Below are positions 15,230 to 37,547 of a stretch of DNA of 64,000 nucleotides, one piece after another (the stretch's first letter is position 1; every line of letters starts with the position of its first letter). Both the position numbers and the translations under genes were made by a program. Location of the stretch: positions 6,076,001 to 6,140,000 of the forward strand of contig NZ_CP070225.1 in NCBI RefSeq assembly GCF_021631985.1, read 5' to 3'. Source of the DNA: Sandaracinus amylolyticus. GTDB taxonomy: Bacteria > Myxococcota_A > Polyangia > Polyangiales > Sandaracinaceae. The notes below the pieces were generated by a model. It was not told the DNA's origin, ran no database searches, and saw only the letters and a list, made by a program, of their open reading frames with translations.

Positions 15230-16867
15230 ATGTCGAGCTATGCCCGCCACCTCGCGCCGAACGCGACGCCGCAGAGCGAGCGCGCCGATGCGCGCCAGGT
15301 CCGCAACTCGGCGGGCGGCTTCACGTTCGCGCTGGACGACTTCGCGCGCCTCGAGCGCTTCTTGATCCTCGGCAACGAGGGCGGCTCGTACTACGCGACC
15401 GAGCGTGCGCTGACGATCGAGAACGCGGGCGCGCTCGTGCGTTGCCTCGGCGTCGACGGTGCGCGCACGGTCGACACGATCGTCGCGATCAGCGAGTCGG
15501 GCCGTGCGCCCGAGAACGACCCCGCGATCTTCGCGCTCGCGCTCGCCGCGTCGCACGCCGTCCCCTCGGTGCGCGCGCGTGCGCTCGCCGCGATGCCGCG
15601 CGTCTGCCGCACCGGCACGCACCTCTTCCACTTCGTGCGCGAGGTGCAGGCGCTGCGTGGCTGGGGCCGCGCGCTCCGCAAGGCGATCGCGTCGTGGTAC
15701 CTCGCGAAGGCGCCCGACGAGCTCGCGTACCAGCTCGCGAAGTACACGCAGCGCGACGGCGTCTCGCACCGCGACGTGCTCCGTCTCGCGCACCCGAAGG
15801 CGAAGGATCCCGCGACCCACGCGCTCCTGCGCTGGGCGGTCGCGGGTGAGGGCGCGCTCGGCCCGCGCGAGGTGAAGCGCGTGGACGCGACCGCGATTTA
15901 CCCCGCGGTCGATGCGAGCGCGATGCCGCGCCTCGTCGAGGGCTTCGCGCGCGTTCGTGCGCAGGACCTCTCGTCGCGCGACGTCGCGGCGCTGATCACG
16001 GAGCACGGGCTCACGCACGAGATGATCCCCTCGATCTATCTCGCGCGCCCCGAGGTCTGGGAGGCGCTGCTCCCCCGCATGCCGCTGCACGCGATGCTCC
16101 GCAACCTCGCGCGCATGACGGCGAACGGCCTGGTCGCGCCGGGCTCGGCGGCGACCTCGCGCATCGTCGCGCGTCTCGGGGATCGCGATGCGATCCGCAA
16201 GTCGCGCGTGCACCCGATGGACGTGCTCATCGCGCTCCGCACCTATGCGTCGGGCCACGGTCTCCGCGGCTCGCTCGCGTGGACGCCGGTGTCGACGATC
16301 GTCGACGCGCTCGACGCGGCGTTCGATCTCGCGTTCGTCAACGTCGAGCCCACGGGCAAGACGCTGATGCTCGCGCTCGACGTGTCGGGCTCGATGTCGA
16401 TGGGCCAGCTCGCGGGCTCGCCGCTCACGCCTCGCGAGGCTGCGGCGGCGATGGCGCTCGTCACGGCGCGCACCGAGCGCGACTACCAGATCATGGCGTT
16501 CTCGGATCGTTTCGTTCCGCTCGACGTGACGGCGCGCATGCGCCTCCACGACGTGGTGGAGAAGACGAGCCGACTCCCCTTCAGCGCGACGGATTGCGCG
16601 ATCCCGATGCTCCACGCGACGGAGCGCAATCTCCGCGTCGACGCGTTCTGCGTCTACACCGACAACGAGACCTGGTTCGGCGGCATCCATCCGCACCAGG
16701 CGCTCGCGGCGTATCGCGCGAAGACGGGCATCCCCGCGAAGCTCGTCGTCACCGGCATGACCGCGACGAAGTTCACGATCGCGGATCCGAACGACCCGGG
16801 CATGCTCGACGTCGTCGGGTTCGACGCGGCGGCACCGGCGATCCTCGCTGCGTTCCTCCGCAATTGA
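15230..16867 (+). CDS. rsr: TROVE-domain Ro60 orthologue (Rsr-like Y RNA-binding protein)
   Basis: 545 residues from MSSYARHLAPNAT, with GGAGG five bases before the ATG; the Deinococcus Rsr has a similar length. Residues ~15-350 form the HEAT-repeat TROVE ring (GGFTFALDDFARLERFLILG, FHFVREVQALRGWGR, LAKYTQRDGVSHRDVLRLAHP). The C-terminal half is a von Willebrand A domain with an intact MIDAS, DVSGSMS at residues 384-390. Ro proteins bind misfolded RNAs in the ring and Y RNAs on the outer surface, and in bacteria help exoribonucleases mature or degrade structured RNA. Two structured RNA candidates lie directly downstream on the same strand, which fits. rtcB/rtcA, common partners elsewhere, are absent. 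Confidence 0.95.
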   Translation: MSSYARHLAPNATPQSERADARQVRNSAGGFTFALDDFARLERFLILGNEGGSYYATERALTIENAGALVRCLGVDGARTVDTIVAISESGRAPENDPAIFALALAASHAVPSVRARALAAMPRVCRTGTHLFHFVREVQALRGWGRALRKAIASWYLAKAPDELAYQLAKYTQRDGVSHRDVLRLAHPKAKDPATHALLRWAVAGEGALGPREVKRVDATAIYPAVDASAMPRLVEGFARVRAQDLSSRDVAALITEHGLTHEMIPSIYLARPEVWEALLPRMPLHAMLRNLARMTANGLVAPGSAATSRIVARLGDRDAIRKSRVHPMDVLIALRTYASGHGLRGSLAWTPVSTIVDALDAAFDLAFVNVEPTGKTLMLALDVSGSMSMGQLAGSPLTPREAAAAMALVTARTERDYQIMAFSDRFVPLDVTARMRLHDVVEKTSRLPFSATDCAIPMLHATERNLRVDAFCVYTDNETWFGGIHPHQALAAYRAKTGIPAKLVVTGMTATKFTIADPNDPGMLDVVGFDAAAPAILAAFLRN

Positions 16868-16876
16868 TCACGCATC

Positions 16877-16957
16877 CGGAAGGTCCGGGCCGCTGCACGA
16901 GGGTTACCTCTTCACAAGGTCACCCCCCTCGCGCGTTCTGTTGTCCGGACCCTTCCG
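16877..16957 (+). ncRNA. Possible first Y-like RNA: long imperfect hairpin after the Ro gene
   Basis: Ten bases after the TROVE stop an ~81-base segment folds back on itself. The outer stem is CGGAAGGTCCGG (16877-16888) with CCGGACCCTTCCG (16945-16957), 12 bp with one bulged C. Then comes an asymmetric internal loop, then an inner stem of 8 pairs and one mismatch, GCACGAGGG (16895-16903) with CCCTCGCGC (16926-16934), and a pyrimidine-rich apical loop with a small ACCT/AGGT helix. A long stem of paired ends, an internal loop and a bulge is the architecture of Y RNAs. The alternative is a terminator of the TROVE gene, since a CTCCTTTT tract follows at 16960-16967. Confidence 0.5.
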
Positions 16958-16968
16958 CACTCCTTTTC

Positions 16969-17094
16969 GGATCGAGCCGTAGTCAACGGGTTATCGCTTT
17001 CACGCGGGAGATGCGGGTTCGAATCCCGCCGAGCTCGAGAGAGCTCGTCGTCCAATGGCCAGGACCCCTATCCGTGACGTTCTTTGTTCGATCC
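16969..17094 (+). ncRNA. yrlA: YrlA-type Y RNA with a circularly permuted tRNA(Glu)-like domain
   Basis: Ends pair: GGATCGAGC (16969-16977) with GTTCGATCC (17086-17094), nine pairs including one G-U. An inner helix pairs ACGGGT (16986-16991) with ATCCGT (17070-17075), with GTC/GAC next to it. Inside is a tRNA-like fold in permuted order. An anticodon-loop-like CTTTCAC is at 16997-17003. The T arm is GCGGG-TTCGAAT-CCCGC at 17013-17029. The acceptor 3' strand CGAGCTC (17030-17036) is followed by a GAGA tetraloop, then the acceptor 5' strand GAGCTCG (17041-17047), seven perfect pairs. U8-like T is at 17048. The D arm is GTCC-AATGGCCA-GGAC (17050-17065) with the invariant GG. No CCA end exists. 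This matches the published description of YrlA RNAs, tRNA mimics lacking a free CCA end. Exact 5' and 3' ends are not known. Confidence 0.85.
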
Positions 17095-18546: not shown

Positions 18547-19896
<1,350 letters not shown>

Positions 19897-19899
<3 letters not shown>

Positions 19900-37387: not shown

Positions 37388-37458
37388 GCTCGCGTGTGTA
37401 GCACGCGCGCTTGACGCGACCGCGCGCGTCTCCGAGGATCACGAGCAGCCCGACAGAT

Positions 37459-37510
37459 GGCGGTGGAGTCCGCCGAGAACCGCTGCCTCGATGCAGCCAA
37501 TGACTCCTAC
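37459..37510 (+). promoter_or_regulatory. Fluoride riboswitch (crcB motif) aptamer
   Basis: The first stem is GGCGG (37459-37463) with CCGCC (37470-37474). Its loop bases GGAGT (37465-37469) pair with ACTCC (37503-37507) as the aptamer pseudoknot. The second stem is GCTGC (37482-37486) with GCAGC (37493-37497). The conserved AACCGCTGC and CCAATGACTCCTAC segments match the known consensus closely. It lies 77 bp before a CLC-F gene, a usual target. Fluoride binding should switch the gene on. The 3' strand CTCCTAC can instead pair with GTAGGAG at 37548-37554. Confidence 0.95.
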
Positions 37511-37547
37511 GATGCGCAGCTCCGCGACCCGCGGAGCGCGGCGCGCC

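What the first reader, a model, noticed from the sequence alone, without database searches (positions are those of the whole stretch)
16969..17094. YrlA-type Y RNA that is a circularly permuted tRNA(Glu)-like molecule beside a Ro60 gene
Seen: nine-pair closing stem, second helix with bulge, and a tRNA-like core in permuted order. The T arm is perfect (loop TTCGAAT). The seven-pair acceptor stem is capped by GAGA (a GNRA loop) instead of ending in CCA. The D arm has the GG pair, and there is a U8-like base. Known: YrlA RNAs bind Ro60 orthologues and mimic tRNA without a free CCA end. New to me: the CTTTCAC anticodon-loop-like piece (16997-17003), T arm and D arm read like tRNA-Glu(UUC) split and rejoined in reverse order. 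This suggests an origin by permutation of that tRNA.
Basis: partly seen in the sequence, partly recalled or inferred. Interest (0 to 1): 0.9.

Follow-up and report, generated by a model that had tools for sequence, protein, structure and literature searches.

The report
Y RNA that mimics a permuted tRNA
Next to a Ro60 gene in a soil bacterium lies a small RNA of a known type (YrlA) that imitates a transfer RNA whose parts are rearranged in a circle; comparison with dozens of relatives shows that many such RNAs also keep a tRNA-style anticodon arm, which makes the idea that they act as stand-ins for tRNA directly testable.

Summary
16969-17094 (+) folds as described and lies 0.1 kb after a bona fide Ro60 gene. 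It is a YrlA-class Y RNA, the second of two tandem Y RNAs (the first, 16877-16957, was not in the finding). A covariance model built without it or its genus picks it out of the 64 kb at E = 3.6e-12. The permuted order (T arm, acceptor hairpin, D arm) is the known YrlA architecture, already described as a circularly permuted tRNA. A tRNA-Glu(UUC) origin is not supported: the sister species has CTATCAA where this one has CTTTCAC, the D arm is closest to tRNA-Gln(CUG), and the T arm equals that of tRNA-Ser. In 52 non-redundant YrlAs, and again in 23 held-out phage, viral-contig and plasmid ones, the stretch 5' of the T arm forms an anticodon arm in exact tRNA register (complete 5-bp stem in 15/52 and 11/23; U33 in 13/15 and 10/11), with covariation. 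So many YrlAs look like complete permuted tRNAs, opened inside the anticodon stem where the Ro60 stem is attached. In the window RNA this arm is degenerate. The primary YrlA papers were not held, so prior mention cannot be excluded.

The parts
15230..16867 (+). Ro60/Rsr orthologue (TROVE + vWA_Ro60), the protein partner
   Evidence: Pfam PF05731 4.5e-45 and PF25045 7e-67; 96% identical in sister species
16877..16957 (+). first Y RNA (no tRNA-like domain; GGGTTACC motif); not in the finding
   Evidence: fold z -4.5; weak RF01053 Deinococcus Y RNA match 23.9 bits; 79/82 of 16876-16957 conserved in sister
16969..17094 (+). YrlA-class Y RNA
   Evidence: R2 model E 3.6e-12 on its core; RF02553 31.3 bits; fold
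16969..16977 (+). 5' strand of the 9-bp closing stem (presumed Ro60-binding); partner 17086-17094
   Evidence: fold; presumed by analogy with the known lower stem of bacterial Y RNAs
16982..16991 (+). second helix with bulged A16986; partner 17070-17078; overlaps the GGTTAY motif (16989-16994) shared with relatives
   Evidence: fold; GGTTAY in 30/42 YrlAs, shuffled mean 0.9
16994..17007 (+). anticodon-arm equivalent, degenerate: UCGC(UUUCAC)GCGG; CTTTCAC = 16997-17003
   Evidence: fold; sister UCGC(CUAUCAA)GCGG; family statistics
17009..17012 (+). variable-loop equivalent AGAT (short, 4 nt, as in the same subtype elsewhere)
   Evidence: alignment A2
17013..17029 (+). T arm, GCGGG TTCGAAT CCCGC
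   Evidence: sequence; fold
17030..17047 (+). acceptor-stem equivalent closed by a GAGA loop (no free CCA end)
   Evidence: sequence; fold; GAAA in sister
17048..17065 (+). U8-C9 and D arm, GTCC AATGGCCA GGAC (Gln/Glu type)
   Evidence: ranking against 54 own-genome tRNAs
17066..17068 (+). positions 26, 27-28 (CC); 27-28 can pair with 42-43 (GG, 17007-17008 in the 4-nt variable-loop register), the top of the anticodon stem
   Evidence: R2 alignment; family: 40/52 and 19/23 paired

Best explanation
The element is a YrlA-class Y RNA. Its lower stem and internal loop (16969-16991/17070-17094) are inferred to bind the Ro60 ring encoded just upstream. Its upper part is a tRNA opened inside the 5' strand of the anticodon stem (between positions 28 and 29), with the former 5' and 3' ends joined by a GNRA loop, so that no aminoacylation end exists. 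Such a domain is expected to be handled as a tRNA (pseudouridylation, dihydrouridine) and to tether an effector such as PNPase to Ro60, or to serve as a stand-in target for tRNA-binding enzymes. It belongs to a YrlA subtype of its order with a Gln/Glu-like D arm (U8-C9, GTCY AAYGG..GGAY) and short variable loop. Its anticodon arm is a fast-changing remnant. Shown here: gene context, fold, conservation, subtype and family-level anticodon-arm signal. Inferred: Ro60 binding, effector, modification, expression.
For: Ro60 identity. Independent model R2 hits only this place convincingly, E 3.6e-12. Same subtype with near-identical T arm and a Gln/Glu-like D arm in G169, G185, G488, G144 of the same order, in tandem with generic YrlAs. 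GGTTAY motif 5' of the hairpin shared with YrlAs of other Ro60 loci (30/42 vs 0.9 shuffled). Anticodon arm in tRNA register: 27-28:42-43 paired 40/52 (swapped partners 11.6, max 18), 29-31:39-41 15/52 (2.5, max 7); held-out set 19/23 and 12/23; hairpins with exactly 7-nt loops carrying U33 and R37 16/52 vs 1.8 (max 7 in 400), no such excess for loops of 6 or 8 nt. Covariation of the lower stem 0.734 vs 0.236 shuffled, 0/500. Handling of YrlA by DusA/TruB and PNPase tethering: PMC8394870.
Against: Rfam's YrlA gathering score is missed (31.3 of 69), although phage and alphaproteobacterial YrlAs beside Ro60 score only 36-42. In the window RNA the anticodon stem is mispaired in the CTTTCAC register (G.G, C.C) and the MFE hairpin has a 6-nt loop. 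No promoter or terminator pattern was found. R2 also scores adjacent tRNA-Ile/tRNA-Ala genes highly elsewhere in the genome (63 bits), so it is not specific against tandem tRNAs; the window has none. No expression or binding data.
Confidence: 0.9

Rival explanations
1. The RNA is a permuted copy of tRNA-Glu(UUC).
For: CTTTCAC equals the Glu(UUC) anticodon loop; a Gln/Glu loop occurs in 0.8% of shuffles of the 5' 44 nt, any anticodon loop in 9%. D arm is of Gln/Glu type. tRNA-Glu(UUC) of family members matches 33 nt at 91%, mostly through the T arm.
Against: Sister species has CTATCAA; 9 of 13 ungapped differences sit in that 17-nt linker. D arm nearer Gln(CUG), T arm identical to Ser. Closest relatives with the same D-arm type carry Gly-like CUUCCAA and Cys-like CUGCAAA loops. 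The YrlA class is far older than the genus.
Confidence: 0.07
2. It is two tandem tRNA halves or a tRNA pseudogene rather than a Y RNA; adjacent tRNA genes with complementary acceptor strands imitate the permuted core.
For: R2 hits tRNA-Ile/tRNA-Ala spacers in the same genome; RF00005 gives a sub-threshold 20-bit match at 16968-17037.
Against: No upstream D arm or downstream T arm; ARAGORN finds no tRNA in the window; acceptor loop is a GNRA tetraloop; two long enclosing helices conserved in the sister; position next to Ro60.
Confidence: 0.03
3. The family-level anticodon-arm signal is only a small structural hairpin without any link to anticodon recognition; U33 and purine 37 are kept because U-turn loops are stable.
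For: Triplets 34-36 vary freely between species; many YrlAs lack the hairpin or have other loop sizes; the window loop is 6 nt.
Against: Exact tRNA register including unpaired 26, 27-28:42-43, 5-nt variable loop and a 7-nt loop only; some loops are identical to real anticodon loops (Met CUCAUAA, Lys CUCUUAA, Gly CUUCCAA).
Confidence: 0.3

Closest known systems
YrlA RNA (Rfam RF02553; Salmonella YrlA, PDB 6CU1)
   Same: Beside Ro60, long closing stem, permuted order T arm - acceptor hairpin - D arm, U8, GG in D loop; circular permutation relative to tRNA already reported (PMC11472068)
   Different: Low score against the Rfam model; Gln/Glu-like D arm with U8-C9; short variable loop; anticodon-arm hairpin between helix 2 and the T arm, for which the Rfam consensus has no room
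Deinococcus Y RNA (RF01053)
   Same: Ro60-associated; resembles the first Y RNA 16877-16957 (23.9 bits, E 0.046)
   Different: Below Rfam cut-off 80; much shorter effector part; not the RNA of the finding
Ro60-linked YrlAs of Methylobacterium, mycobacteriophages and Gordonia phages
   Same: Same core, GGTTAY motif, often a complete anticodon arm (e.g. L193, L227, L324, L328)
   Different: Generic D arm TA-GCTC..GAGC and GGTC-type variable loop; lie upstream of Ro60, not downstream

Membership tests
YrlA-class Y RNA | Encoded next to a Ro60/Rsr gene | tested here: met
   Ro60 15230-16867; RNA starts about 100 nt after it
YrlA-class Y RNA | tRNA-like domain in order T arm, acceptor hairpin, D arm, no CCA end | tested here: met
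   R2 model E 3.6e-12
YrlA-class Y RNA | Long lower stem plus second helix joining both ends | tested here: met
   9 bp + 9 bp in MFE fold; kept in sister
YrlA-class Y RNA | Score above Rfam RF02553 gathering cut-off (a practical, not biological, criterion) | tested here: inconclusive
   31.3 of 69 bits; phage and Bosea YrlAs beside Ro60 score 36-42
YrlA-class Y RNA | Bound by Ro60; modified by tRNA enzymes; effector (PNPase) binding | not testable with these tools
   needs pull-down and mass spectrometry
Permuted tRNA-Glu(UUC) | Anticodon loop CUUUCAC conserved | tested here: not met
   CTATCAA in sister species
Permuted tRNA-Glu(UUC) | D and T arms closest to tRNA-Glu of the genome | tested here: not met
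   D arm best to Gln(CUG), T arm identical to Ser
tRNA | Cloverleaf in tRNA order with acceptor end | tested here: not met
   ARAGORN 0 in window

The most novel reading that the evidence does not exclude
Many YrlA RNAs are complete circularly permuted tRNAs that display an anticodon arm with U33 and a purine at 37, each paralogue presenting a different 'anticodon', and work as Ro60-bound decoys or sensors for anticodon nucleases and other anticodon-reading enzymes; the window RNA is a Gln/Glu-type member whose anticodon arm is being lost.
Probability: 0.3. Interest if true: 0.85.

Novelty: new variant of a known kind. Interest (0 to 1): 0.6.

Why it matters
Why a Y RNA should imitate a tRNA is open. 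The reviews I could read compare YrlA with the D, T and acceptor arms only. If many YrlAs also carry an anticodon arm, with several different 'anticodons' in one Ro60 locus, the published suggestion that YrlA competes for an anticodon nuclease (PMC7790460) becomes directly testable, also in phages that carry Ro60, YrlAs and tRNA arrays. It also gives a concrete picture of how the permutation sits: the chain is opened between tRNA positions 28 and 29.

Tried and rejected
Rfam at gathering threshold found nothing here. ARAGORN on 'un-permuted' sequences does not discriminate (46/52 against 42.5 with the anticodon arm shuffled). RF02553 over 379 genomes returns many tandem-tRNA false positives, and so does R2 in whole genomes. 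My first Gln/Glu-type model R1 contains the window and was used only to find relatives. The primary YrlA papers (Chen 2014, Wang 2018, the 2018 and 2020 reviews) are not in the library, so I cannot exclude that an anticodon-like hairpin was noted there. The sigma-54 regulator at 18547-19899 was considered as RtcR; Pfam found no RtcR domain. RtcB genes exist elsewhere in the genome.

Full report
1. What is there. The window lies at G000:C1:6076001-6140000 of a 10.96-Mb genome; the genome looks like a Sandaracinus (my inference from size and relatives). A Ro60 gene (15230-16867; TROVE and vWA_Ro60) is followed after 9 nt by an RNA-like element 16877-16957 (fold z -4.5; weak match to Deinococcus Y RNA) and by the reported element 16969-17094 (fold z -2.56). 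Both elements are conserved in the only other genome of the genus that has this Ro60.

2. Family. Rfam's best hit is YrlA (31.3 bits, E 5e-5 in a 401-base search, cut-off 69). The Rfam model shows the same order of arms: T arm, acceptor hairpin, D arm. Ro60-linked YrlAs of phages and Bosea also fall far below the cut-off (36-42 bits), so that cut-off is too strict outside its seed. I therefore built a model (R2) from 30 YrlAs of other genera, all of the generic D-arm type; neither the window, nor its sister, nor its Gln/Glu-like subtype was used. In the 64-kb window it finds 16994-17068 at 43.2 bits, E 3.6e-12; the next best is 12.1 bits.

3. The permutation is known. A comparison of RNA 3D structures describes bacterial Y RNA (PDB 6CU1) as circularly permuted relative to tRNA (PMC11472068). 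A review describes the D, T and acceptor likeness, the action of DusA and TruB, and tethering of PNPase (PMC8394870).

4. Is it a permuted tRNA-Glu? Against the 54 tRNA sequences of the same genome the D segment ranks Gln(CUG) 14, Glu(UUC) 12, Gln(UUG) 12, Glu(CUC) 10, next 8 of 18; the T arm is identical to tRNA-Ser(GCU) and Ser(GGA). So the D arm is of the Gln/Glu kind, not specifically Glu. The sister species is identical at 105 of 109 positions outside 16995-17011, but has CTATCAA instead of CTTTCAC; 9 of 13 ungapped differences lie in these 17 nt (Fisher p 8e-7). Allowing two 1-nt gaps, my own reading by eye, the change reduces to about five events: UCGC-UUUCAC-GCGG-GAGAU against UCGC-CUAUCAA-GCGG-AAAU. 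The same subtype (U8-C9, GTCT AAYGGYA GGAY, near-identical T arm) occurs in four genomes of another family of the order, in tandem with generic YrlAs. There the loops are CUUCCAA, CUGCAAA, UUUUACA and an imperfectly closed CUAUUCA. The anticodon-like triplet is therefore not conserved and does not agree with the D arm. A single tRNA-Glu parent is not supported.

5. What the CTTTCAC segment is. In the relatives the same place often forms a hairpin with the geometry of an anticodon arm. I tested this on 52 non-redundant YrlAs of genome loci. Hairpins with exactly 7-nt loops: 27/52, shuffled 12.6-13.9, maximum 22 of 400; with U33 and a purine at 37: 16, shuffled 1.8, maximum 7; no such excess for loops of 6 or 8 nt. 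In exact tRNA register (one unpaired base 26, 5-nt variable loop) pairs 27-28:42-43 form in 40/52 (swapped partners 11.6, maximum 18) and pairs 29-31:39-41 in 15/52 (2.5, maximum 7); all 15 have the full 5-bp stem, with U33 in 13 and R37 in 14. Restricting to RNAs with a closing helix of at least 7 Watson-Crick pairs leaves 13/39 (1.9, maximum 7).

6. Held-out test. The hypothesis was then applied to viral contigs, phages and plasmids not used before. Of 23 non-redundant YrlAs, 11 have the complete stem (29-31:39-41 in 12, swapped 2.5, maximum 8; 27-28:42-43 in 19, swapped 6.4, maximum 12), U33 10/11, R37 10/11. On alignment A4 (30 sequences chosen by 27-28:42-43 pairing but not by the lower stem) the lower stem alone has 32 cells changed on both sides (shuffled 13.2) and covariation 0.734 against 0.236, 0 of 500 shuffles. 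These shuffles ignore relatedness, so the numbers are not probabilities; the sliding control in the same call (0.11-0.38) and the held-out set guard against this.

7. Reading. Many YrlAs are best described as complete circularly permuted tRNAs opened between positions 28 and 29, with the Ro60 stem attached at the opening. Positions 27-28 come at the 3' side after the D arm; 29-43 with the anticodon loop come at the 5' side before the T arm. Some loops equal real anticodon loops (Met CUCAUAA, Lys CUCUUAA, Gly CUUCCAA). Paralogues in one locus present different triplets: L321 CUGUUAA and CUCUGGA; prophage prophiGD43A-5 CUUGUAA and CUUUCCA. In the window RNA, 27-28:42-43 (CC/GG) is kept, but the lower stem is mispaired in the CTTTCAC register and refolds as UCGC(UUUCAC)GCGG. 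It is a member with a degenerating anticodon arm.

8. Function. Inferred, not shown: Ro60 binds the lower stem; the tRNA-like part recruits PNPase or tRNA enzymes. A Salmonella study proposed that YrlA, not cut by an anticodon nuclease, may compete for it (PMC7790460). YrlAs with an anticodon arm would be stronger candidates for such a decoy role; phage tRNAs are thought to face the same kind of nuclease (PMC10264068). This step is speculation.

9. Limits. No expression data; no promoter or terminator pattern. The primary YrlA papers were not readable here, so the absence of an earlier report of the anticodon arm rests on the papers I could search. R2 does not separate YrlAs from adjacent tRNA genes (tRNA-Ile/Ala, 63 bits). 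That similarity also suggests, without proof, that permuted tRNAs could arise from tandem tRNAs; in several Myxococcota the Ro60 genes and YrlAs lie inside tRNA-like arrays.

Noticed in passing
window 16877-16957: A second Y RNA without a tRNA-like part, between Ro60 and the YrlA, with the same GGGTTAYC motif; 79/82 positions of 16876-16957 conserved in the sister species.
   Followed up: partly
G000:C1:9952407-9955391 (L084, L128): A second, divergent Ro60 gene in the same genome, next to an array of low-scoring tRNA-like genes (39-51 bits); conserved in the sister species (L129).
   Followed up: partly
L124, L125, L127, L134 (same order): Three to four YrlAs in tandem, with different D-arm types and different anticodon-like loops.
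   Followed up: partly
L138, L141, L145, L151: Permuted tRNA-like RNAs where the anticodon arm lies 3' of the D arm instead of 5' of the T arm (opening near the variable loop), most with a CACGCA motif upstream; G115 (L145) had no TROVE match.
   Followed up: no
L328 3217-3295 (MW584167.1 26001-26079): Annotated tRNA-Thr(tgt) of prophage prophiGD43A-5 is the 5' half (anticodon and T arms) of a YrlA at L328 3249-3323; at least two more YrlAs follow before the Ro60 gene.
   Followed up: partly
L031-L056, L130, L165, L186: In many Myxococcota the Ro60 gene sits inside an array of tRNA or tRNA-like genes; in L130 YrlAs and tRNAs abut without spacers, which suggests release by tRNA processing.
   Followed up: no
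G000:C1:9675955-9676070: The tRNA-Ile/tRNA-Ala junction scores 63 bits with the permuted-tRNA model, so tandem tRNAs imitate YrlA cores and may be their source.
   Followed up: no
window 37450-37516 +: Fluoride riboswitch aptamer (RF01734, 44.6 bits).
   Followed up: no
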